A DNA stretch of 38,401 nt from Candidatus Poribacteria bacterium. Its GTDB lineage: Bacteria > Poribacteria > WGA-4E > WGA-3G. The position numbers and the translations under genes were made by a program. The stretch spans positions 1 to 38,401 of the forward strand of contig JAPPII010000019.1 of NCBI GenBank assembly GCA_028820845.1, in the 5' to 3' direction. The first letter of the stretch is position 1. The number at the start of each line of letters is the position of its first letter. Below are positions 8,026-22,015 of the stretch, piece after piece. The notes beneath the pieces were generated by a model. It had not been told where the DNA came from and made no database searches. It was given only the letters and a program-made list of their open reading frames with translations.

Positions 8026-9023
8026 TTGCCAAACAAAAAACCCACACCAGATACCTTCCAAACCACGCTCCCACTCCCGCTTGAAAACGAAGAACACTTG
8101 GATATATCTACCCTCGAAAACTGGCTGTGGGATGCCGCCTGTGTCATTCGCGGCGCAACCGATGCCCCAAAATTCAAGGATTTCATCCTACCACTCATCT
8201 TCTACAAACGTCTCTCCGATGTGTTTGATGACGAATTCGCTAAACAGGTGGAAGAATTCGGAAATGAAGAACTCACACGCGACATCATCAAAGCCGACCA
8301 TGAAGATGCCCTAAAGAACGACCGTCCCCCGATCGTCCGTTTCTACATCCCGCAGGAATACCGTTGGGAAGCACTCCGCAACCACCCCGCAGACGGACAC
8401 TTAGGCGAATTCGTTACAGATGCCATGCGTCAAGTTGCGCGTTTCAACCCAAGACTCCAAGGCGTTAACCCCGAACCCTACTCCACCCTCTACGATCCAG
8501 CGTGTGGCTCAGGAGGTCTGCTTATCAAACCCCGACTTCTCTTCGAGCAGAACCATCCAGACAAAAAGGGACAAGCCCCACAAATCTACGGTCAAGAACT
8601 CACGCCAACGACCTACGCAATGGCGAAGATGAACGCCTTCCTGCACGATTTCATCGGCGCAGAATTCCGTATCGGCGATACCTTAGCAAACCCACGAAAC
8701 GCCAAAACCAGATATTACTCATCAATCTCTCCAAACATTTCGTGAAAGGCGATCTGAAAAATATCCTAACCAACGAAGGGATTAACGTCGCAACAGAAGT
8801 CTACCAAGCGTGGGAATCCCGCGAAAAGTTGAGCAACATTATCACATTGGAAGATGCCCAAAAAACCGATTACAATCTAAGTCCGTCCCAGTTCGTAGAC
8901 GTAGGCGACAAAATAGAACACCGACCCGTGAATGAGATACTAACAGACTTAGCAGAGGCGCGGGTTGCCCGCGAGAAGGCAGATAAAACTTTGGAAGAGG
9001 TGTTGACGCAACTTGGGCTGTAG
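8026..9023 (+). pseudogene. hsdM: Type I DNA methyltransferase HsdM, internal deletion and frameshift
   Basis: The reading frame from TTG 8026 (AAAGGA 8 nt upstream) encodes an HsdM N-terminal helical domain (WLWDAACVIRGA.DA..FKDFILPLIFYKRLSD) and SAM motif I, DPACGSGG, at residues 157-164. It continues through YGQE and a GDTLANP segment, then stops at 8745. From about 8710 a different frame encodes the HsdM C-terminus (ILLINLSKHFVKGD.., KTDYNLSPSQFVDV) up to 9023. The catalytic NPPF motif and a central block, estimated at 150-200 residues by comparison with typical HsdM, are missing. The methyltransferase therefore looks inactive. An intact hsdM once stood here, upstream of the hsdR remnant. 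Confidence 0.85.
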
Positions 9024-9108: not shown

Positions 9109-9132
9109 GTAGGAGCGAGCTGTGCTCGCGAC
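9109..9132. repeat. GTAGG-type hairpin repeat, copy A
   Basis: A 24-nt element starting GTAGGAGCGAG, whose GCGAG/CTCGC arms form a hairpin. An identical 24-nt copy is at 33035-33058. It is REP-like and lies in the gap between the hsdM remnant and the TPR gene. Confidence 0.6.
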
Positions 9133-9165: not shown

Positions 9166-9194
9166 TTGACACCCATTTGTGAGTATGATATAAT
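9166..9194 (+). promoter_or_regulatory. Near-consensus sigma70 promoter for the TPR/PIN operon
   Basis: TTGACA (9166-9171) and TATAAT (9189-9194) are separated by exactly 17 bp. Transcription would begin near 9201, leaving a leader of about 300 nt before the TPR protein gene. Confidence 0.65.
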
Positions 9195-9502: not shown

Positions 9503-12500
9503 ATGACAATACTCGATTTAGTCTTCACAGCATATAACATTATAGGAACTGGATTTTCTATTGCTGGTGGTATCAACCACGCCATCAAACGCTTTTGTCA
9601 AACTACAGCAGAGGAGCTTTTCAAAGAGTCTTTTGTTAAGGTAGTTAAGCAATACGCGTCTGACTTTGCCGATCAAACTGACCCGAAAACAGTTGAAGTG
9701 GATGCTAATTTACTTGATAAAGTTATTACTTCACTTAAAGACGATGATATGGTCCAATTCACACAATTAAATGAAAGCGAAAAAATCGCAAAAATCACAA
9801 CACTTTTTCGGAACTGTATTATCGTCCCCAACCATCAATTGCCCAATATGGATTTTGAACGAAGAATCCGTCCCATTATTGAAAGAGTGATTATCGATTT
9901 TTATGCACAACTGCCATTCAAACAGGAAGCATTCAATCAAATTGTTCTTGAATTTATTCAAAACGACATAAAGAATCAAGATGATGCCCATACGATGTTA
10001 ACTGGATTGTCAAGTAAAATTGACTATGTGCGAAATGAAGTGGCACAACGTCTTTCTGCGGATATCCAAGCCATCAAAGATGACACCGAAAAAATTAAGA
10101 ATGATAATAAGGAACTTAAGCATACGACGGGCGCGACTTTAGATGCAGTTCGTGAAATTAAATCTCTACTTGATGTCAATACCGCTACCTCGATAGAGTC
10201 CGCAGTTGCAAAAGAACATCAAGAACAAATAGACTATGCGCAACAATTACTTAAGAGTCATAAACCAGCAACTGCTTTTGAGTTATTAGAAGCTCTGAAG
10301 AAACGAACATGGAAAGAGGCTTCGGATGATCTAAAATTTAGTATTCTAACGAATATGGCAGCTGCGCAATTTGCCCTAAATAACGAAGAAGCAGCAGCAA
10401 GATTGTTGATTGAGGCATTTGATTTCAATCGTGAAGACGAAAAGGCATTATCTAACCGTGCTTTGGCTCACCTCTTACTGGGAGAAACAGAATATGCTGC
10501 AGACTACGCAAAACAGGCACGGAAAAAGAATCCTTCAAATACAGATGCTCATGTTATTCTCATTGGAATTTCTGCTGAGGAAGAACCACTTGATGAAGTA
10601 ATTGCTAAAGTTCCTGACCATTTGCACAATTCCGCACAAATTGCTTACGCTATCAGCAATTTAGCAAAACAACGAGGGAATTTTGAAGCAGCGAAAAGAT
10701 GGGGCGAAACCATGGTAGAACAGGGAAATGCTCCTGATTTCAAAGCTGCTTTCGCAACTATCTTGATTAACCAAGTATTGGAAGATAATCTTGCTGTGGG
10801 GACCAGTCAACTTTATGAGGCACAAAAGCAACAATTACAGCGTGCAATAGGATTTCTTACTGAGGCATGGAATACTGTTTCTAATACAGAATTAAAGGAT
10901 TATAGAGCATATTGGATCATTAACAGAGGAATTGCACATTTTCACCTTGGCGAGTTGACAAAAGCAACGGAAGATCTTGATACTGCCTTAGGAATTGAAA
11001 AATCGGATCCAATTTTGGTAAAAAATCGTGCGTTATTAGCTTTTGAGTGTGGAGATATAGCAAAAGCTGTTGAACTCTTGGAAAAAATCCAATCCGCGCC
11101 GGAAGTCCCTGAAGCACCAATTATACTTGCTAATATCTTCCTCGCGAGTAAACGTTTAGATGAAGCGATAACAAAACTTAACAATTTCTTGCAGACAGAT
11201 TTGTCTCCAGAACTTCAAGAGAAAGCAAGACATTTGCTCATTGATGTTTATATTGCTGATAAACGTTTTGATGATGCATTGGAAATTTCAATAGCGATGC
11301 GCGAGTCAACCCCAAAGAGCATACTGAATCTTGTTGACGCTGCTCGCATTTTTAGCGCGAATGAAAAACGCGATGAAGCAGTTTCTCTACTCAAAGAAGC
11401 ATACAACTATGTTCGGGATGGCGCAGAATTTCTTGATATCGTAATGTTGGCTGACCAACTTTACATCCATGAACTATTTAAAGAAGCTGCAACGCTCTAC
11501 GAAAAACTTGCTGACACAAGTCAGAATTCTCAATTGACACAGTGGTTGATCAAAAGTTATTATAGCGCAGGAGAAATCGGGAAAGCACTTGAGATATGTC
11601 AGAAACTTCGTGAGAAATATGGACCACTTGAAAACATCTCCGAGATGGAGGTCGTGATTTATGAAGAAATCGGAGATATGAGTCAAGCCGAAACGGTATG
11701 TAAGGACTATTTGAAAAAATTTCCTAATAATATTGGTATGCGAATCCGTCTTGGTATGATTCTTTTTCGATCTAATAAAGAAGAAGAAATTGATAATGTG
11801 TTAGAAAGTTTTCCTGATTCCAAGAATTATTCTTTCCTCGAGAATCTTTCTCTGGAAGTATGCGTTCAATTCGTCCAATTACATCAAATAAGATTACAAC
11901 CGGAAAAAGCACTGAAGATAATGTATGAAGTACGTAGAACGCATTTTGATAAACCCAATGCCCATCTTAGATATATCGGTACCTTCTTTTTAGTTGCAAA
12001 AGAAATTTCTGAGGTACTAAACCCAACGGAAGTTGATAAGGACACAGCGGTACAAATTAACATTTCTGATGAAGGCTATTGGTATATCATTGAAGCACGT
12101 GAAAATGCAGATATCGCACGCAATGAACGTGATGTGAATGACCCTTTCGCTCAACAATTACTTGGGAAAGAGAAAAATGTCAAGGTAAGGATTGGCGAAA
12201 AGACCGTAAAGATCGTTGATATCAAGAGTAAATTCTCTTATGCCTTTCAAGAGAGTTCTCGTAAATACAAGCACCTGTTTCCAACAGATCAAGGTATGGA
12301 AACGGTTAAATTGGATGATTCTGCAGAAATCGATGATAAAGAAAGATTTCAACCGATATTTGATAGGCTTGATCAGCAACAAGAATACTTTGATCGAATT
12401 GAAAAACTATACAAGGAAGAAAACATAACAATCGGTTGTTTTACTAATTTAGTGCGTAGCAATAGTTTAGATACATGGGATTCCCTCATGGGTAACCCTG

Positions 12501-13900
12501 AATTAGGGATTAGGTGTAGTATTGGGGGTGTTGAAGAAAGAAGCAGCATCCTTAACCGACTTAATGATTCCAAACCCAAACTTATTGTAGATATTATTTC
12601 CCTAATAACTTTACACAGTTTGGATGCTGCGGATATTGTGGTCAGCACGTTTGGAAAGCTCTGCGTTGCCCAATCGACTATCGATGAATTACAGCGTATT
12701 ATCAATGAAAGAGAAGGAATGTGGTCTAAACGCGAGGGAATGATAGTAGGGAAAAAAGGAAATCGGTATGTAAAACAAATTATCAGTCCTGAGGATACGA
12801 AAAGAGGAATAGCATATCTAAAAAACCTTGTTAATTGGATTAAGGATAACTGTGAAGTTGGTCAAGCCACTGTTGGGTTAGAGATGAACCAATTACGCAG
12901 GAGAGAACTCAATGACATGCTACAACAGCATTTCCTTGATACTGTCCTTCTCGCAAGCCAACCCGGGCACCTACTTTTCTCGGATGATGGACGGCTCAGA
13001 TATTATGCAAAAACGAGCCTCAATAGCGATGCTGGGACAAACTTTCAAATTGACGGTGTGTGGACACAAGTTTTATTGGAACATTGTGTTCAGCAAAATC
13101 GCCTTGATAAAGCTGACTACGATGAGATGACGATAAAACTTGTTTGTTCAAACTACTATCACACGCAATTTGATGCAGATTTGTTAATGGAAGTCGCTAA
13201 ACGTTCAAATTGGAAGCTCTCCGATCCATACAATAGTTTTGTGCTTGCCTTAGGTGAAGAACGAATGAATGGACTTTCGGCATTAGACGTGAGCGTTGAT
13301 TTTCTCTTTACACTTTGGGAGGAGTCAATTTCTTTCAGAGAAAAAGAATTCTTGACGTTGGGTTTATTAACCGGACTGACTTATGGACGGAATGCCCACA
13401 CAGTATTGAACCGACTTGAATATCTAATTCAAGATAGGCATAGACTTTTTTTGCCTGTTGAAAACAGTATCCTCAGACGAATCAATGAATTTAAGCAAAT
13501 TTATCCTCTTGAAGGGAACTTTGCGTTTTTGGCAGAAAATGATATTCGTCTTAAAGGAACACGGGTAGGTATTGAAACTATTCTATACGAATATATTCAC
13601 AATAACAAAACACCAGTCGTCATCGCTGATCACTACTATACCCCCACACTGGAACAGGTTTACGCCACGATCCTATATTATCTTCAAAATCAAGAAAAAG
13701 TTGGTACATATCTGGAGGATTATCTGAAATATTGCCAAACGGCACAGGAGGAATACGAGAAAAACCCGCCTCCCGGTGCTGTTCGCTTGCGTGAACTTAT
13801 AGCAGAAAAGGAAGCAAATTCTGATGGACCCGATCCCACCAATCCAGAAAACGACACAGCAAGTACAACACAATCTTCATCCAAAAATGAACAGGAATAA
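9503..13900 (+). CDS. Giant TPR / GreA-B C-terminal-like / PIN-like nuclease protein
   Basis: A 1465-residue protein. Residues ~1-160 are an unrecognised helical domain, ~165-230 a coiled coil, and ~240-830 helical repeats with TPR character (GETEYAADYAKQARKKNPSN, GELTKATEDLDTALG). Residues ~855-915 resemble the GreA/GreB C-terminal domain (DPFAQQLLGK at 880-889 followed by VRIGEKTVKIVDI), the domain that docks on RNA polymerase in Gre factors. Around 1020-1200 there is a PIN-like nuclease pattern: Asp1030 in LIVDIISL, Glu1062 in IDEL, and Asp1161/Asp1162 in SDDGRLR. The tail is low-complexity. From family knowledge, similar TPR-GreAB-C-PIN architectures occur in predicted conflict systems. 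It is AT-richer than its neighbours and sits inside a broken type I RM locus. Activity as an RNase is inference. Confidence 0.75.
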   Translation: MTILDLVFTAYNIIGTGFSIAGGINHAIKRFCQTTAEELFKESFVKVVKQYASDFADQTDPKTVEVDANLLDKVITSLKDDDMVQFTQLNESEKIAKITTLFRNCIIVPNHQLPNMDFERRIRPIIERVIIDFYAQLPFKQEAFNQIVLEFIQNDIKNQDDAHTMLTGLSSKIDYVRNEVAQRLSADIQAIKDDTEKIKNDNKELKHTTGATLDAVREIKSLLDVNTATSIESAVAKEHQEQIDYAQQLLKSHKPATAFELLEALKKRTWKEASDDLKFSILTNMAAAQFALNNEEAAARLLIEAFDFNREDEKALSNRALAHLLLGETEYAADYAKQARKKNPSNTDAHVILIGISAEEEPLDEVIAKVPDHLHNSAQIAYAISNLAKQRGNFEAAKRWGETMVEQGNAPDFKAAFATILINQVLEDNLAVGTSQLYEAQKQQLQRAIGFLTEAWNTVSNTELKDYRAYWIINRGIAHFHLGELTKATEDLDTALGIEKSDPILVKNRALLAFECGDIAKAVELLEKIQSAPEVPEAPIILANIFLASKRLDEAITKLNNFLQTDLSPELQEKARHLLIDVYIADKRFDDALEISIAMRESTPKSILNLVDAARIFSANEKRDEAVSLLKEAYNYVRDGAEFLDIVMLADQLYIHELFKEAATLYEKLADTSQNSQLTQWLIKSYYSAGEIGKALEICQKLREKYGPLENISEMEVVIYEEIGDMSQAETVCKDYLKKFPNNIGMRIRLGMILFRSNKEEEIDNVLESFPDSKNYSFLENLSLEVCVQFVQLHQIRLQPEKALKIMYEVRRTHFDKPNAHLRYIGTFFLVAKEISEVLNPTEVDKDTAVQINISDEGYWYIIEARENADIARNERDVNDPFAQQLLGKEKNVKVRIGEKTVKIVDIKSKFSYAFQESSRKYKHLFPTDQGMETVKLDDSAEIDDKERFQPIFDRLDQQQEYFDRIEKLYKEENITIGCFTNLVRSNSLDTWDSLMGNPELGIRCSIGGVEERSSILNRLNDSKPKLIVDIISLITLHSLDAADIVVSTFGKLCVAQSTIDELQRIINEREGMWSKREGMIVGKKGNRYVKQIISPEDTKRGIAYLKNLVNWIKDNCEVGQATVGLEMNQLRRRELNDMLQQHFLDTVLLASQPGHLLFSDDGRLRYYAKTSLNSDAGTNFQIDGVWTQVLLEHCVQQNRLDKADYDEMTIKLVCSNYYHTQFDADLLMEVAKRSNWKLSDPYNSFVLALGEERMNGLSALDVSVDFLFTLWEESISFREKEFLTLGLLTGLTYGRNAHTVLNRLEYLIQDRHRLFLPVENSILRRINEFKQIYPLEGNFAFLAENDIRLKGTRVGIETILYEYIHNNKTPVVIADHYYTPTLEQVYATILYYLQNQEKVGTYLEDYLKYCQTAQEEYEKNPPPGAVRLRELIAEKEANSDGPDPTNPENDTASTTQSSSKNEQE

Positions 13901-13902
13901 AG

Positions 13903-14259
13903 ATGCGTCGGTTTCTGATAGACGAAAATATTTCTCCGGAATACCGTACGCAATTGCTGAGGCGTGAGCCATCATTGACAGTCTTAGCTATAGGTGATGA
14001 AGGTGCTCCTCCGAAAGGCACACAAGACCCAGAAATCCTTAAGTGGTGTGAACAGAATAATTTCATCTTGGTGACAAAAGATCCGAATACCATTCCAAAA
14101 CATCTTTCTGACCATCGGGAAGCAGGGAACCACGTCCCGGGAATTTTAATGGTTAAGAGTAGTGGGTCAATGGGAACGATTCTTGACAATCTAATCTTAA
14201 TCGCTGGTGCATCCAACGAAGACGAATATATTGACCGAATTACTTACATCCCACTTTAA
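13903..14259 (+). CDS. DUF5615 PIN-like protein (Mut7-C/VapC-type fold)
   Basis: 118 residues matching DUF5615, a PIN-like family often acting as toxin in toxin-antitoxin pairs. The N-terminal acidic motif is FLIDENI (Asp7-Glu8), the middle TQDPEILKWC supplies a second acidic site, and FILVTKD supplies the third, with the PGIL segment after it. Its ATG lies 2 nt after the stop of the TPR/PIN protein gene, so the two are almost certainly cotranscribed and translationally coupled. The usual DUF433 antitoxin neighbour is absent. It may instead partner with the large protein, giving two PIN-like domains in one operon. Confidence 0.75.
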   Translation: MRRFLIDENISPEYRTQLLRREPSLTVLAIGDEGAPPKGTQDPEILKWCEQNNFILVTKDPNTIPKHLSDHREAGNHVPGILMVKSSGSMGTILDNLILIAGASNEDEYIDRITYIPL

Positions 14260-14596: not shown

Positions 14597-16834
14597 ATGT
14601 CAGAACGTTCAGCAGTGCAAGACCCACTCCTCAAATACGCTAATGAAATCGGTTGGCACGCTATTTCACCATCAGAAGCCCTTCAAATGCGAGGCGGCGA
14701 TACCACTTCGCTCTACTTCACCGACATCCTACACGCACAACTCATGAAACGCAACAGAGGCGTATTGAGTGAATCCGAGTGCGCAGATGTCATGCAGCAA
14801 CTGCGTTCCCTCACACCGACACTCGAAGGAAACCGAGAGGCACTTTCATGGCTGCGCGGCGAGCAAGCAACCTTCATTCAAAACGAGAACCGCAATCGCA
14901 ATGTCCCCCTGATTGATTTCGAGATCCCGGACAACAATCTATTCCACGTAACCGATGAATGGGAACAACAAAGCACCGTCCACCGCAACCGCGCCGATGT
15001 CGTATTCCTCATTAACGGGATCCCCGTGGTAGTCGTTGAGACGAAAAACACCAACAGACCCGACGGCGTAGCACTCGGTGTCGAACAAATCCGCCGCTAC
15101 CACACCGAAACGCCAGAGATGTTCACCACCGCGCAAATCTTCGGCGTCACACAACTGCTCGACTTTTTCTATAGCGTGACGTGGAACACCAGCCGCAAAA
15201 GCCTGTTTAACTGGAAAACCGACGAAGTTACCAATTACGAGCAGAAAGTCAAAACCTTCTTCGACCGCGACCGCCTTCTAACAATCCTACAGCAGTTAAT
15301 CATCTTCCAGAGCAGAGACGATCAGCTCACCAAAGTCGTGTTGCGTCAACACCAGACCCGCGCAGTCGAAAAAGTCATTGAACGCGTCCATGACCGAAAT
15401 AAACGGCGCGGACTCGTTTGGCATACACAGGGCAGCGGTAAAACCCTCACCATGATAACCATCGCAGCCCGTCTCCTACGCGGTGGACAGCAGACAGAAA
15501 AACCCACCGGGCTGATGGTCGTCGATCGCAATGAACTGGAGAGCCAACTCTTTAGAAACATCACCGGCTACGGTATCACAACAGTTAAGGTCGCCCAGAG
15601 CAAAGACGACCTTGAGCGAATTTTAGCCGCCGACCACCGAGGCTTAATCGTATCGATGATTCATAAGTTCGACAAGAGACCCGAGAACCTTAACACCCGT
15701 GAAAGCGTGATTGTTCTCATTGACGAAGCACACCGCACCACCGGCGGCGATTTCGGGAACTATCTCATGGCAGCCCTACCGAATGCAACCTACATCGGTT
15801 TCACCGGCACCCCGATTGACAAACTCTCCAAAGGCGAAGGAACTTTTAAGGTTTTCGGTGTAGACGACGAACAAGGCTATCTCGACAAATACGCCATCAC
15901 GGAATCCATTGAAGACAGCACGACGGTACCGCTGAATTATGCCCTTGCCCCGTCTGACCTACGCGTTGCGCGCGAGACATTGGAACGCGAATTTCTAAGC
16001 CTTGCAGTCACCGAAGGGATGAGCGATCTTGAAGAACTCAATGCAATTCTTGACCGCGCCGTTCAACTGAAAGAGATAATGAAAGCACCTGACAGGATAG
16101 ACGGCATCGCTGCCGCTGTCGCTGAGCATTTCCGCGAGAACATAGAGCCGATGGGCTTCAAGGCGTTTCTCGTCGCTGTAGACCGAGAAGCGTGTGCATT
16201 GTACAAGCAGGTACTGGATAACTATCTACCCCCGGAGTATTCGGAAGTCGTGTATTCCCCTTACCATCAAGATGCTGAGGCTCTGAAGGCACACTATCGT
16301 ACTTCAGACGAAGAAAAAGAAATTCGCAAAAAATTCATCAACAAAAACGAACATCCGAAAATTCTGATTGTAACGCAAAAGTTGCTAACCGGCTTTGATG
16401 CACCTATCCTCTACTGTATGTATCTCGATAAACCCATGCGCGACCACGTTTTGTTACAGGCAATCGCACGCGTCAACCGACCTTACGAAGATGCCGATGG
16501 CTTGGTAAAGTCCGCCGGGTTCGTCTTAGATTTCGTCGGTATCTTCGAGAACCTCGAAAAGGCACTCGCATTCGATGCCGACGATGTGACAAGCGTCATT
16601 CGCAATCTTGACGTACTTAAAAACGATTTCGCCAAGCGAATCCGTGAGGACGCAGCAGCATATCTACTCTTTACCGAAAACGTTGACAGAATTCGTCATC
16701 GTCCACGAATTGATCCATCTCCTTGTCCCAAATCACGGCAAACTGTTCAAGAGTTTCATGTCCGCATATCTCCCCGATTGGGAAGAGAGGCAGAACCGTT
16801 TGAAATCTTTTTAGCCGGAACCACTTCATTGTAG
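14597..16834 (+). pseudogene. hsdR: Type I restriction subunit HsdR, 3' truncated
   Basis: This encodes HsdR up to about residue 696. The N-terminal PD-(D/E)xK nuclease shows VVFLINGIPVVVVETKN (Glu-x-Lys near 148-150). The SF2 helicase follows with Walker A HTQGSGKTLT (~276-285), DEAH box VLIDEAHRTTGG (~375), motif III GFTGTPI, and motif VI region QAIARVNRPY. After ...LLFTENVD (about nt 16690) the sequence leaves the HsdR family and runs ~49 residues through out-of-frame metallopeptidase DNA. Typical HsdR is about 1000 residues. The lost C-terminal helical domain is the one that docks on the methyltransferase core. With hsdM broken and hsdS absent, restriction is unlikely, although the remaining motor and nuclease look intact. 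Confidence 0.85.
16687..16814 (+). pseudogene. 3' fragment of YgjP/DUF45 zinc metallopeptidase
   Basis: In another frame inside the hsdR tail, about 42 codons encode FVIVHELIHLLVPNHGK followed by a PDWEERQNRL segment. This is the C-terminal HExxH...H zinc site and conserved tail of the YgjP/DUF45 family, which often follows hsdR in type I loci. Its 5' part is missing, so a deletion joined hsdR to this gene. Confidence 0.75.
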
Positions 16835-17343: not shown

Positions 17344-19164
17344 ATGTACGATAAGAAGAACCGTAAAATTGCTGACGTAAGCCCCGACACACGTGATATG
17401 TTTGCTGAGCATGACGAGGAACTCGAAGAAGAACTCGCGTCTGAAGAAGAGGAGGCGAGTTCCGGTTACACCTTACAACTGATTCACCACATTATTGCCG
17501 AGACCCCTGTTGATGACCGGCGCCGTCGATGGCTCCTTGAACTTCGGCGTTCGATCCTCAGTGATGAAGGTGAATTTCGTGAAAGAATCCACGCCATTCA
17601 GCAGGAAGCACTCCGTATCCACGCCGAGATGGAGGCACAGATCGAGAAACTTACCTCACCCGCAAATCGTATTGGTACATTGCTTGGATTGCCCAAAGAA
17701 GACATCGCCCGTGTTATCGTCGGCGGTTCCGAATACTACGCCAATCTCGATACACAATTAGACCCGAAAACCCTCAAAAAAGGGTTTAGCGTTCTACTCA
17801 ACGAGGCGTATGTCGTCGTCGGGGAACTCGGATACAACGATGCCGGGCCTATCGCAAAAATAGCGGATGTCATGCCAGATGGACGGCTCCGTATCGGTCA
17901 AGAACCCAACGCACAATCGATTATCCTTGAACGCTCCACCGACCTCGCTGATGCAAAACTCAAGCCCGGCGATGAAGTACGGATTGACTCCAACTCCCGA
18001 GTCGCTCTGGAATACCTTGCTGCCAAAGAAACAGATGCTTATGCACTTGAGGCTGTTCCCGATATTCCTTGGTCGAAGGTAGGCGGACTTGACGAGACCA
18101 TCCAAAGAATTAAGGATACCATTGAACTGCCAATCCTCCATCCTGAACTTTTTGAACGATTCCAATATAGCGCACCAAAAGGTTTTCTGCTCCATGGACC
18201 TCCGGGATGCGGAAAGACGCTCATCGGGAAAGCCACTGCCTATAACTTAACGCAACGGCTCCGAAAAGAGAGCGGTGAGGATATTGAAGGCTGTTTCCTT
18301 CACATCAAGGGTCCTGAGATCCTCAATATGTGGCTCGGTGAATCCGAACGGAAGGTGCGAGAGATTTTTCAAATCGCCCGCGAGAAAAAGGATGAGGGCA
18401 AATTGGCGTTCGTCTTTATAGATGAGGCAGAATCCATCTTAGGCACGCGGCGCGCCCTGAGATCCCATAGTATCTCTAATACCCTCGTACCTATGTTCTG
18501 TGCAGAGATGGATGGCATTGAATCTCTACAAGACGTTGTTATTATCCTCGCAACGAACCGTCCAGATCTAATCGATCCCGCCATTCTAAGACCGGGACGG
18601 ATTGATAGAAAAATTAAAGTAACCCGGCCAGATGCAGATGCCGCAAAAGACATTTTCCGTATCTATCTCACGCCGGAACTACCCATCGCAGCAGAGGAAC
18701 TCCTTGGTGCTGCAGACGAGGAGAGTTCAGCGGATACAGTACCAGATCTGATTCCTGCTGAGAAGGCTGTCGAAGATCTAATCGCACAGATTGTTGATGA
18801 AATGTTCCGTGAGAGCGAGGAAAACCGATTCCTTGAAGTCGCACTCCGAAGTGGTAGACGCGATATCCTCTATCGCGGACATCTCTGTAGTGGCGCAATT
18901 ATTGAGTCAATTGTACAGCGAGCCAAAGAAACCGCACTCAAACGCGCAATTCAGAACCCCGAAAAAGAAAGTGGTATCTCACGCGCAGACCTCTTAGACG
19001 CACTTGCTGCCGAGTATCGTGAAAGCGAAATCTTCCCACCAACGGAAGCGACAGAAGATTGGCTCAAACTCCTTGACTACGATCCTGCCAATGTCGTCAA
19101 GGTTACGCCTATCAAACTTGAAAAACAGGAGCGGCGCAAAACTTCAGGATCCCGCGTGATTTAA
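17344..19164 (+). CDS. mpa: Proteasome-associated AAA+ unfoldase (Mpa/ARC)
   Basis: A 606-residue homologue of Mpa/ARC, the hexameric ATPase that recognises the ubiquitin-like tag, unfolds the target, and feeds it into the 20S proteasome. An acidic N-terminus and coiled-coil region (~10-105) lead into interdomain OB regions (~110-230). The AAA+ module has Walker A GPPGCGKT (~283-290), Walker B FVFIDEAES (~356-364), and arginine-finger region RPGRIDRK. The Mpa-type insertion (MFRESEENRFLEV) and C-terminal SGAIIESIVQRAK helix are present. The length equals mycobacterial Mpa, but the C-terminus ends SGSRVI rather than the GQYL that docks on the proteasome. ATG 17344 follows GAGGAG. It heads the operon with dop, ubact, prcB, prcA and pafA. 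Confidence 0.93.
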   Translation: MYDKKNRKIADVSPDTRDMFAEHDEELEEELASEEEEASSGYTLQLIHHIIAETPVDDRRRRWLLELRRSILSDEGEFRERIHAIQQEALRIHAEMEAQIEKLTSPANRIGTLLGLPKEDIARVIVGGSEYYANLDTQLDPKTLKKGFSVLLNEAYVVVGELGYNDAGPIAKIADVMPDGRLRIGQEPNAQSIILERSTDLADAKLKPGDEVRIDSNSRVALEYLAAKETDAYALEAVPDIPWSKVGGLDETIQRIKDTIELPILHPELFERFQYSAPKGFLLHGPPGCGKTLIGKATAYNLTQRLRKESGEDIEGCFLHIKGPEILNMWLGESERKVREIFQIAREKKDEGKLAFVFIDEAESILGTRRALRSHSISNTLVPMFCAEMDGIESLQDVVIILATNRPDLIDPAILRPGRIDRKIKVTRPDADAAKDIFRIYLTPELPIAAEELLGAADEESSADTVPDLIPAEKAVEDLIAQIVDEMFRESEENRFLEVALRSGRRDILYRGHLCSGAIIESIVQRAKETALKRAIQNPEKESGISRADLLDALAAEYRESEIFPPTEATEDWLKLLDYDPANVVKVTPIKLEKQERRKTSGSRVI

Positions 19165-19267
19165 TAACCATCAGTCGTTGGCAGTCGAAAACCAAGAGCA
19201 GCGTATGGCGATTGCGAACGTTTCTAACTGCCACAATGATCTGCTGACTGCTGATAGCCATAAAAAT
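19165..19267. repeat. Repeat-derived intergenic sequence before dop
   Basis: A stretch rich in degenerate CTGACTGCTGATAGCC-type units, which happens to be open in the dop frame. Its TCTAACTGCCACAATGATCT segment closely matches 26819-26838, so it is a dispersed repeat rather than conserved coding sequence. Confidence 0.5.
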
Positions 19268-20782
19268 ATGGAAAGACTTTTTGGAATTGAAACTGAATAC
19301 GGGATAACACTCGAAAATGAGTCAAACATTGATGCTGTTAAGCAATCAATTGAGTTGATAAAAAGTTATCGTCAGGAAGATTTTCGACCGGTGTGGGACT
19401 ACCGTGGGGAAGACCCGTTTCGAGATGAACGCGGTTTTCGCGCAGACGCTCTCTCCAACCATCCTGATGAAAAGGAGGAGGCGGCACGCGACCGCGAACG
19501 CAACAAGAAAAATCGACTCTCTTTCGCGGAGATTAAGAGCGATCACATCCTCGTGAACGGCGCACGCCTTTACAACGACCACGCACATCCCGAGTATTCC
19601 ACGCCCGAATGCAAGCGTCTGTTTGAACTCGTCGCACACGATAAAGCCGGCGAACGTATCCTACAGCGATGCGCTGAAACCCGCAGTGAGAAACTTGGAA
19701 AACGTGTCCTACTCTATAAGAACAATACCGATTTGCACGGGCATAGCTACGGGTGCCACGATAACTATCTCATGGCGCGGGCAGTCCCATTTGAGAAACT
19801 CAAACAGGGCATCATGCCCTTCTTTATCACGCGTCAAATCTTCGCCGGGGCAGGAAAACTCGGCATCGAAACGGAAGCCGGACTCGCAACACCGGGACAC
19901 TATCAACTCTCTCAGCGTGCCGATTTCTTTCACGTTGAGGCAAGCGTTGATACAATGCATAACCGTCCTATCGTTAACACGCGGGACGAACCGCATGCGG
20001 ATCCGTCGAAATATCGTAGGCTCCATGGGATTGCTGGCGACGCAAATATGTCGGAGTACGCAACCGCACTCAAAGTCGGTACAACCGCACTCGTCATTAC
20101 ACTGATTGAACAAGACAAGATTCCTGAGAGTCTAATACTCGCAAATCCGATTGATACCATCAAAACTGTATCGCACGATCAGACGTATCGCTGGATGGTG
20201 ATGACGGCAGACGGGAAGACGATGTCCGCTATTGACCATCAGCGCCAGTACCTTGCCCTCGCACAGAAGCATCTCGATGAGAGTGTCGGGCTTGAGATTG
20301 ACTGGGTGCTCACTGAATGGGAAGATACTCTCAACGCACTTGAAACGGATCCCATGACACTCGTTGACCGACTTGATTGGGTGGCGAAGAAATGGCTACT
20401 CCAAACCTTTGCGGAGGAAGAAGGTATTGCTTGGGATGACGCATGGCTCCAGAGTCTGGATTTAGAATATCACAATATCAATCCAGACGAAGGACTATAC
20501 TACGGGTTCCCGATGCGGCGCATCGTCACAGACGAACAGATTGAGGCGGCACTTCATAATCCGCCTTCTGGCACGCGGGCTTATTTCCGAGGGCGTGCCG
20601 TCGATCGGTTCAGTACCTCTATAAAAGCCATCCAGTGGGATAGTATTACCTTTACCGTCAACGGACGCACGCACGAAGTCAATCTCAACGCACTCGCCGA
20701 TGCGGAGATCGCAAATCAGTATAATAAGACACTTGATGAATCGCCTGACGTTGGAACACTTATTAAGAAATTGCGTTTATAA
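19268..20782 (+). CDS. dop: Dop, deamidase/depupylase homologue
   Basis: A 504-residue carboxylate-amine ligase-fold enzyme of the Dop/PafA family. It is assigned as Dop because it has the ERGFRAD region with the following Dop-loop (~50-95), TRAYFRGRA near the C-terminus, and WDSITF. It should hydrolyse the isopeptide bond that links UBact to target lysines. Because UBact here already ends in Glu, deamidation is not needed. Mg-ATP ligands lie in GIETEYG (Glu8, Glu10), and the catalytic Asp is Asp104 in NGARLYNDHAHPEYS. An upstream in-frame ATG at 19178 would add 30 residues from a repeat; the family N-terminus starts at ATG 19268 (MERLFGIETEYG). No strong ribosome site is visible there. Confidence 0.92.
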   Translation: MERLFGIETEYGITLENESNIDAVKQSIELIKSYRQEDFRPVWDYRGEDPFRDERGFRADALSNHPDEKEEAARDRERNKKNRLSFAEIKSDHILVNGARLYNDHAHPEYSTPECKRLFELVAHDKAGERILQRCAETRSEKLGKRVLLYKNNTDLHGHSYGCHDNYLMARAVPFEKLKQGIMPFFITRQIFAGAGKLGIETEAGLATPGHYQLSQRADFFHVEASVDTMHNRPIVNTRDEPHADPSKYRRLHGIAGDANMSEYATALKVGTTALVITLIEQDKIPESLILANPIDTIKTVSHDQTYRWMVMTADGKTMSAIDHQRQYLALAQKHLDESVGLEIDWVLTEWEDTLNALETDPMTLVDRLDWVAKKWLLQTFAEEEGIAWDDAWLQSLDLEYHNINPDEGLYYGFPMRRIVTDEQIEAALHNPPSGTRAYFRGRAVDRFSTSIKAIQWDSITFTVNGRTHEVNLNALADAEIANQYNKTLDESPDVGTLIKKLRL

Positions 20783-20895
20783 ATTGCGGTTAACGGTTAG
20801 GTTGCTGCGCTTTTAGCAAACAGACAACAGCGAAAAGTGGAGCGTAGCGGAACGCCCTAATCGCGAATAGCCAACTACTAAAAAGGAGAGATAAA
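20783..20895 (+). other. Spacer between dop and ubact
   Basis: A short gap of degenerate repeat sequence that ends with the strong ribosome site AAAGGAGAG (20881-20889), placed for high translation of the tag gene. Confidence 0.45.
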
Positions 20896-21093
20896 ATGGC
20901 AACCAAACTTATTGCACAGCTCGAACGCAAGCAGAGAGACACGAAACCAATCGGTCCCGGCGATGGTGATGATGATAGCAGTGGACCGAAACGCCAGAAA
21001 GTTAGCAGACCCGATACCCAAGAACTTCTCAAACGGATGCGTAGGGTTGACAAAGATCAATCCCGTCGCTATCGACAGAGAACCGGCGAATAA
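20896..21093 (+). CDS. ubact: UBact, prokaryotic ubiquitin-like protein modifier
   Basis: A 65-residue, very hydrophilic, probably disordered protein placed between dop and prcB. It starts at ATG 20896 after a strong AAAGGAGAG. It has a basic helix-prone N-terminus (KLIAQLERKQ), a Gly/Asp/Ser-rich linker (residues 19-30), a Lys/Arg-rich second half, and ends DQSRRYRQRTGE. The C-terminal R(Y/F)RQR(S/T)GE matches the UBact family of Gram-negative bacteria rather than the GGQ/GGE end of actinobacterial Pup. PafA would ligate the side-chain carboxylate of the terminal Glu65 to lysines of substrates, while the middle region would bind the coiled coils of Mpa. The role is known from family work; conjugation in this organism is inferred. 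Confidence 0.9.
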   Translation: MATKLIAQLERKQRDTKPIGPGDGDDDSSGPKRQKVSRPDTQELLKRMRRVDKDQSRRYRQRTGE

Positions 21094-21193
21094 AGAAATT
21101 GGCAATCAGCCGTTGGCAGTTGGCAAATGGTTTCCATAGACCAACAGCCATTAGCCAATAGCCGTCTCGCTGAAAGCCGAAAGCCATTAAGAA

Positions 21194-22015
21194 ATGTCAA
21201 TTAAAAACACAATAAACCACAAAGGAGACTTTCTCAGTCTTTTGCAACATGCAAACTACCCCCTACAGGTAGGTTTGCCATCTGAAACGCAGCAGCACGC
21301 AGATATTGAGATCGCACACAGCACGACTGTTGTTGCTGTCCGCTATCGAGATGGGGTTATGATTGCGGGTGACCGGCGGGCCACTGCCGGCACTGCTGTC
21401 ATCTATGACCGCGCTGAGAAAGTCTTACAGATTGATAGGCATTCTGTACTTGCCATTTCGGGGTCACCCGCGATTGCTTATGAGATCGCGCGGATACTTG
21501 AGCATTCATTTCAATACTTTCGCCGCAGCCAACTCCAAGAGTTGAGCCTTGAAGGCAAACTCCGGATGCTGTCCCGACTCATTCGCGATAACTTGGCGAT
21601 GGCACTCCAAGGCATCGGCGGTGTTATTCCGATTTTTGCCCTCTATGATCTGGAGGCACCTGAGGCGGAAAACGGCGGTAAGATTTTCTTCTATGATGCA
21701 CTCGGCGCGCACTTTGAGAACGTTAACTTCGCCACAACCGGTTCTGGCTCCATCTGGATTCGCGGCGTACTACGTTATCTCTCTCGTTTTGGTGAGACAC
21801 CCTTGCAGGAGATGGATGAACGGCAAGCAACCATCACAATCTTGCGACTCTTGGATACCGCAAGTGAGTATGATGCCGCAACCAGCGGTTACAACGCACG
21901 GGCACAAATCTTTCCGACCATCAAAACCGTAACCCGCACGGGTGTCGAAACCCTTTCTAATGAAGACTTAACCGAATCTTACGCTGAAGCGCAACCGGTT
22001 GCAGAAGCAGTTTGA
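21194..22015 (+). CDS. prcB: 20S proteasome beta subunit
   Basis: A 273-residue N-terminal nucleophile hydrolase forming the catalytic rings of the bacterial 20S proteasome. A propeptide of about 43 residues should be removed autocatalytically, exposing Thr44 (mature Thr1) in HS-TTVVAVRYRDGV. Counting from it, Asp17 lies in GDRRAT and Lys33 in RAEKVLQ, both required for catalysis and present. The GTGSGS-like segment (TTGSGSIWI) matches the conserved beta-subunit Gly/Ser motif. No good ribosome site is visible before ATG 21194; the preceding 100 nt are repeat-like. The stop overlaps an in-frame TTG of the prcA frame, but the real prcA start is probably downstream. Confidence 0.93.
   Translation: MSIKNTINHKGDFLSLLQHANYPLQVGLPSETQQHADIEIAHSTTVVAVRYRDGVMIAGDRRATAGTAVIYDRAEKVLQIDRHSVLAISGSPAIAYEIARILEHSFQYFRRSQLQELSLEGKLRMLSRLIRDNLAMALQGIGGVIPIFALYDLEAPEAENGGKIFFYDALGAHFENVNFATTGSGSIWIRGVLRYLSRFGETPLQEMDERQATITILRLLDTASEYDAATSGYNARAQIFPTIKTVTRTGVETLSNEDLTESYAEAQPVAEAV

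What the first reader, a model, noticed from the sequence alone, without database searches (positions are those of the whole stretch)
9503..14259. Two-gene TPR-GreAB-C-PIN plus DUF5615 module inside a restriction locus
A 1465-residue protein joins an unrecognised N-terminal domain, coiled coil, long TPR array, RNA-polymerase-docking-like GreA/B C-terminal domain and PIN-like nuclease, with a second PIN-like protein 2 nt downstream. The design suggests a sensor that acts at the transcription complex and cleaves RNA, with DUF5615 as partner toxin. It is the best candidate here for a little-described defence system.
Basis: partly seen in the sequence, partly recalled or inferred. Interest (0 to 1): 0.72.

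Follow-up and report, generated by a model that had tools for sequence, protein, structure and literature searches.

The report
RNA-polymerase-docking immune protein wearing an antitoxin
In sponge-symbiont bacteria, a large predicted anti-virus protein of an already described type has gained, at its tail end, the antidote half of a toxin-antidote pair, and the matching toxin gene follows two bases later, usually inside a DNA-restriction gene cluster; this suggests that an immune sensor itself holds a poison in check.

Summary
Both genes are real. ORF 9503-13900 (1465 aa) is a TPR-GreA/B-C-PIN protein (PF20698, 2.5e-27; GreA-C fold supported by a structure model; PIN acids D1030/D1146/D1162 invariant), a predicted immune type described in 2021. 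ORF 13903-14259 is a DUF5615 PIN-like protein. DUF433-PIN pairs are a known toxin-antitoxin class. In 85 genomes of the phylum the toxin follows 19 of 21 intact DUF433-bearing copies and no DUF433-less copy. Short versions that lost TPR-GreA/B-C-PIN keep antitoxin and toxin. About 17 copies lie directly behind hsdM of a type I restriction operon, a slot that other genomes fill with Avs2 or a methylase, or leave empty. All parts evolve under purifying selection. In the window the restriction genes are broken while the module is intact. Best reading: a predicted immune sensor that became the antitoxin carrier of a PIN toxin; a new variant of a known kind. Toxicity, neutralisation and release are inferred, not shown.

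The parts
9166..9194 (+). sigma-70-type promoter match, 12 of 12 with extended -10 (TTGACA-17-TATAAT), behind a terminator-like hairpin at 9115-9129; suggests the module has its own transcript
   Evidence: most relatives have a different extended -10 promoter 40-115 nt before the start; consensus matches only
9503..9982 (+). N-terminal helical domain, residues 1-160, unrecognised; shared by DUF433-less copies and by short forms
9983..10267 (+). predicted coiled coil, residues 161-255
   Evidence: long helix 159-223 in a low-confidence model
10280..11992 (+). TPR array, residues about 260-830
12020..12277 (+). GreA/B C-terminal (RNA-polymerase-docking) domain, residues about 840-925
12548..13042 (+). 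PIN nuclease domain PF20698, residues 1016-1180; invariant D1030, D1146, D1162
   Evidence: dN/dS 0.20
13043..13507 (+). post-PIN helical region, residues 1181-1335; DUF433-less relatives end here
13508..13897 (+). DUF433 (COG2442) antitoxin domain with its tail, residues 1336-1465
   Evidence: dN/dS 0.22
13903..14259 (+). DUF5615 PIN-like protein, 118 aa, presumed toxin; ribosome-site-like AGGA at 13893-13896 inside the end of the large gene
   Evidence: dN/dS 0.26
8026..9011 (+). broken hsdM (pieces match residues 1-147, 174-303 and 429-537 of 544, in different frames)
14597..16834 (+). hsdR cut short (matches 1-697 of 957); no hsdS is left between module and hsdR

Best explanation
A TPR-GreA/B-C-PIN immune protein captured a DUF433-DUF5615 toxin-antitoxin pair: the antitoxin gene was joined in frame to the 3' end of the big gene and the toxin gene stayed directly behind. 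SHOWN by sequence: the architecture, the order, the co-inheritance, purifying selection on every part, and the recurrent position inside hsd operons. INFERRED: (1) the toxin is made by coupled translation and held inactive by the DUF433 tail, so the sensor is itself the antitoxin; (2) the protein docks on RNA polymerase through GreA/B-C and its own PIN domain cuts the transcript, as proposed for the core system; (3) when the sensor is engaged, damaged or degraded during infection, the DUF433 tail lets go of DUF5615, which cuts cellular RNA and stops growth, as a second line of defence next to a DNA restriction system.
For: DUF433 matches all 10 relatives scanned (best 1.2e-7). The tail is 62% identical to a 122-aa stand-alone DUF433 in a cyanobacterium and 49% to WP_012593102 on a Rippkaea plasmid, each followed by a DUF5615 gene 53% and 51% identical to the window's. 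Toxin present behind 19 of 21 intact DUF433-bearing copies and 0 of 4 DUF433-less copies (Fisher 0.0012, not corrected for kinship). DUF433-less relatives stop exactly at the join, and one genome (G075) has the unfused order big gene, DUF433 gene, DUF5615 gene. dN/dS medians: PIN 0.20, DUF433 0.22, toxin 0.26. Deletions that removed TPR-GreA/B-C-PIN spared antitoxin and toxin. A COG2442-PIN pair of Synechocystis is a working toxin-antitoxin system (PMC3834315).
Against: No experiment. One full-length copy (G031) and one short copy (G059) keep DUF433 without the toxin. Three fused copies lack about 20 residues of the presumed toxin-binding tail yet keep the toxin, and most toxins read N where the window has the third Asp, so activity may vary. 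The toxin tree does not fully follow the antitoxin tree, so toxins are exchanged. The model of the DUF433 and PIN parts has low confidence. No fused copy was found outside Poribacteria: 26 plasmid relatives and a cyanobacterial genome lack the tail.
Confidence: 0.55

Rival explanations
1. Addiction rider: the DUF433-DUF5615 pair only stabilises the locus it rides on, and the fusion is a by-product without any signalling link to the TPR-GreA/B-C-PIN part.
For: Short forms lost the whole sensor/nuclease core but kept antitoxin and toxin; in the window the restriction genes are broken but the module is intact; stand-alone pairs of the same subfamily are common in the same genomes.
Against: The fused form persists across copies as distant as 51% identity with the core under purifying selection (PIN dN/dS 0.20); short forms keep the N-terminal domain, which an addiction pair does not need.
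Confidence: 0.25
2. PrrC-like guard of the restriction enzyme: the module is silenced by the Hsd proteins it is encoded with and fires when a phage disables them.
For: About 17 copies sit directly behind hsdM, with hsdS and hsdR beyond; PrrC, an RNase linked to a type Ic locus, works this way (PMC2610378).
Against: No PrrC homology; the module survives intact where hsdM, hsdS and hsdR are broken; at least four fused copies are not next to hsd genes; the slot behind hsdM also takes unrelated defence genes; it has promoter matches of its own.
Confidence: 0.12
3. DUF5615 is not a toxin held in check but a second nuclease subunit docked on the large protein through DUF433 and active in the complex.
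For: Constant 2-nt spacing and shared inheritance fit a stable complex equally well.
Against: The same domain pair acts as toxin and antitoxin where tested (PMC3834315); DUF433-less copies show that the core does without it.
Confidence: 0.08

Closest known systems
TPR-GreA/B-C-PIN predicted conflict system (Pfam PF20698; eLife 2021, PMC8195603)
   Same: TPRs, GreA/B-C domain and this PIN family in the same order behind a variable N-terminal domain
   Different: adds a C-terminal DUF433 antitoxin domain and a DUF5615 gene 2 nt downstream, and is repeatedly nested in hsd operons; the paper describes mostly stand-alone genes with few conserved neighbours and does not mention DUF5615
COG2442 (DUF433)-PIN toxin-antitoxin systems, e.g. 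VapBC10 of Synechocystis (PMC3834315; PMC2701414)
   Same: DUF433 followed by a PIN-type toxin gene, antitoxin first
   Different: the antitoxin is not a small protein but the tail of a 1465-residue immune protein
CapRel-type fused toxin-antitoxin (PMC9712102)
   Same: works like: an antitoxin domain sits in the sensor and release of the toxin answers infection (here inferred)
   Different: no homology; there toxin and antitoxin are one chain, here the antitoxin is fused to the sensor and the toxin is separate
PrrC/EcoprrI (PMC2610378, PMC3506569)
   Same: works like: an RNase device encoded inside a type I restriction locus
   Different: no PrrC homology; carries its own antitoxin; stays intact when the restriction genes decay

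Membership tests
TPR-GreA/B-C-PIN system | PF20698 PIN domain | tested here: met
   2.5e-27, 96 bits over a cut-off of 27.8
TPR-GreA/B-C-PIN system | TPR array before it | tested here: met
   several TPR families over cut-off
TPR-GreA/B-C-PIN system | GreA/B-C domain between TPR and PIN | tested here: met
   Foldseek 1grj first, probability 1.00; weak by sequence
TPR-GreA/B-C-PIN system | N-terminal EAD10 or known effector domain | tested here: inconclusive
   a conserved helical domain without a recognised family
TPR-GreA/B-C-PIN system | mostly stand-alone gene, few conserved neighbours (usual, not defining) | tested here: not met
   constant DUF5615 neighbour and frequent hsd context
DUF433-DUF5615 toxin-antitoxin | DUF433 domain | tested here: met
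   10 of 10 relatives, best 1.2e-7; window copy just under the cut-off; 62% identity to a stand-alone DUF433
DUF433-DUF5615 toxin-antitoxin | PIN-like toxin gene directly downstream | tested here: met
   DUF5615 8.3e-10, 2 nt
DUF433-DUF5615 toxin-antitoxin | antitoxin is a small separate protein (usual form) | tested here: not met
   it is the tail of a 1465-aa protein
DUF433-DUF5615 toxin-antitoxin | toxicity and neutralisation | not testable with these tools
   needs expression assays
PrrC-type guard of type I restriction | linked to hsd genes | tested here: met
   about 17 loci, not all copies
PrrC-type guard of type I restriction | PrrC/RloC homology | tested here: not met
   no such Pfam match
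PrrC-type guard of type I restriction | silenced by the Hsd complex | not testable with these tools
   broken hsd genes beside an intact module speak against a strict need

The most novel reading that the evidence does not exclude
An immune sensor that is itself an antitoxin: the TPR-GreA/B-C-PIN protein monitors RNA polymerase (and perhaps the restriction complex it is encoded with), cuts hijacked transcripts with its own PIN domain, and, if it is attacked or overwhelmed, releases DUF5615 from its DUF433 tail, so that a phage which disables the sensor triggers the toxin.
Probability: 0.25. Interest if true: 0.82.

Novelty: new variant of a known kind. Interest (0 to 1): 0.6.

Why it matters
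It was argued that immunity loci carry toxins but no typical antitoxins, so that immune proteins themselves may act as the inhibitors (PMC3506569). Here a genuine antitoxin domain is welded onto a predicted immune sensor, often in a restriction operon, with its toxin next to it. That makes the coupling of immunity and suicide directly testable with two small constructs, and nature provides the controls: copies without DUF433 and toxin, copies without the sensor core, and one unfused copy.

Tried and rejected
Structure of the PIN, post-PIN and DUF433 parts: the 10-sequence alignment was too shallow for a confident model. DUF5615 and the DUF433 tail by phmmer against the PDB: nothing credible; the profile reached 2ga1 (DUF433) only at E 0.72. 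IMG/VR scans with the C-terminal half and with the toxin: no relatives, so no sign of phage carriage. PADLOC and PHROGs: no informative match for the two genes. A palindrome overlapping the -10 box of many relatives was considered as a DUF433 operator; it is absent before stand-alone DUF433 genes, its left half is not strictly kept, and part of the -10 box recurs before DUF433-less copies, so it is not claimed. The Pup-proteasome genes downstream were considered as the degrader of the antitoxin; they are not neighbours of the module in the other genomes. A modelled complex of DUF433 with DUF5615 was not possible with the tools at hand.

Full report
WHAT IS THERE. The window is one contig of a 5.69-Mb genome of 125 contigs; its nearest relatives are Candidatus Poribacteria. 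Pfam gives PF20698, 'PIN domain associated with the TPR-GreAB-C-PIN system', TPRs, and a weak, sub-threshold DUF433 at 1349-1393 in the large protein, and DUF5615 in the small one. GreA/B-C is weak by sequence but clear by fold: the model of residues 840-1465 is confident only there, and E. coli GreA (1grj) and other GreA/GreB-type proteins are the first seven Foldseek hits, all at probability 1.00. PIN residues D1030, D1146 and D1162 are invariant from Poribacteria to Nostoc and Sinorhizobium.

THE MISSED PART. The DUF433 match is real although the window copy scores just below the cut-off: all 10 relatives scanned match (best 1.2e-7), the tail is 62% identical to a stand-alone DUF433 gene in a cyanobacterium and 49% identical to an annotated DUF433 protein on a Rippkaea plasmid. 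In both cases the next gene is DUF5615, 53% and 51% identical to the window's. All four DUF5615 genes of the window's genome lie next to a DUF433 sequence (coordinates). DUF433 (COG2442)-PIN pairs were predicted as toxin-antitoxin systems in 2009 (PMC2701414), and one, VapBC10 of Synechocystis, was shown to work, with its antitoxin degraded by ClpXP2 (PMC3834315).

SURVEY. PF20698 occurs in 17 of 85 genomes of the phylum, patchily. The copies fall into clear types. Fused copies with the core: 16 (some cut by contig ends), of which 15 have DUF5615 two bases behind and one (G031) has none; one of the 15 (G039) has lost its N-terminal two thirds. DUF433-less copies (G018, G055b, G063 and one cyanobacterium): they stop at the end of the post-PIN region and have no DUF5615. 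Short forms (G064, G075, G057, G059, G048, G065): N-terminal domain plus post-PIN region plus DUF433, with the TPR-GreA/B-C-PIN core deleted at the same points; four have the toxin, one has none, one is frameshifted. One unfused copy (G075, cut at a contig end): the core gene ends like the DUF433-less ones and is followed by a separate DUF433 gene and DUF5615; its DUF433 groups with stand-alone antitoxins, so this looks like a second, independent association. Twenty-six plasmid records hold relatives, and those listed align only to the core, residues about 190-1280.

SELECTION. Median dN/dS between fused copies: PIN 0.20, DUF433 0.22, TPR 0.26, GreA/B-C 0.28, toxin 0.26. No part is drifting freely. 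The module is mosaic: window and G045a are identical over residues 1181-1335 (dS 0.02) but not elsewhere, and the window toxin groups with those of G069b and G045b rather than with the toxins of its antitoxin's nearest relatives.

CONTEXT. In most genomes the module sits directly behind hsdM, with hsdS and hsdR further down. Of 30 related hsdM loci, 15 are followed by the module, two by a C5 methylase, one by Avs2, one by another gene, four by hsdS itself, and seven were not resolved; the window and G043 add two more with incomplete hsdM. At least four fused copies lie elsewhere (G069b, G044a, G045a, G039). Two DUF433-less copies lie inside an Hma operon, between hmaA and hmaB. In the window hsdM is broken, hsdS is gone and hsdR is cut short, while the module is open throughout; a consensus promoter stands behind a terminator-like hairpin, and most relatives have a promoter match of their own. 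So the module looks like an independent cargo of restriction loci rather than a restriction subunit.

MECHANISM. For the core, the 2021 paper proposed that GreA/B-C engages RNA polymerase and PIN cuts the transcript, with the N-terminal domain as a fallback killer (PMC8195603). The new evidence adds a second fallback in Poribacteria: the tail is an antitoxin and the toxin is next door. The simplest working model is that the tail holds DUF5615 and lets it go when the sensor is engaged or destroyed. CapRel shows that an antitoxin domain can be the phage sensor (PMC9712102). The sequence facts are shown; binding, toxicity and release are inferred. The strongest rival is that the pair is an addiction rider, because short forms kept it after losing the core.

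NOVELTY. The core system is known and the toxin-antitoxin class is known; their fusion and its residence in restriction operons were not found in the papers searched (only open-licence papers are held). I rate it a new variant of a known kind.

Noticed in passing
L166, L172, L173, L177, L182, L184: The position just after hsdM in Poribacteria is a cargo slot: it holds the module, a C5 methylase with an ATPase/restriction gene, Avs2 or another gene, or is empty (hsdM to hsdS about 15 nt).
   Followed up: partly
L132:298-14447; L127:74-11995: DUF433-less TPR-GreA/B-C-PIN genes lie inside Hma operons (HmaA - gene - HmaB - small gene - HmaC).
   Followed up: partly
window 13043-13507 against L123: Residues 1181-1335 are identical between window and G045a (dS 0.02) while the flanks differ: a recent recombination tract inside the gene.
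   Followed up: no
window 13903-14259; L119; L122: These three toxins read TKDP where nearly all relatives read TNNR, so the third acidic residue varies within the subfamily.
   Followed up: no
L128, L129, L014: Three fused proteins lack the same 20 or so residues after AREE/ARKE in the DUF433 tail, yet keep the toxin.
   Followed up: no
upstream of the module start in L118, L120, L122, L123, L125, L126, L128, L131, L136-L142: Conserved extended -10 promoter (CAGCATAAATATGCTATAATG) with a partly kept palindrome, 40-115 nt before the gene, also in copies outside hsd loci; not before stand-alone DUF433 genes.
   Followed up: partly
window 17344-22015: Pup-proteasome genes (proteasome ATPase, Dop/PafA-like ligase, a proteasome subunit) outside Actinobacteria, right behind the broken restriction locus.
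   Followed up: no
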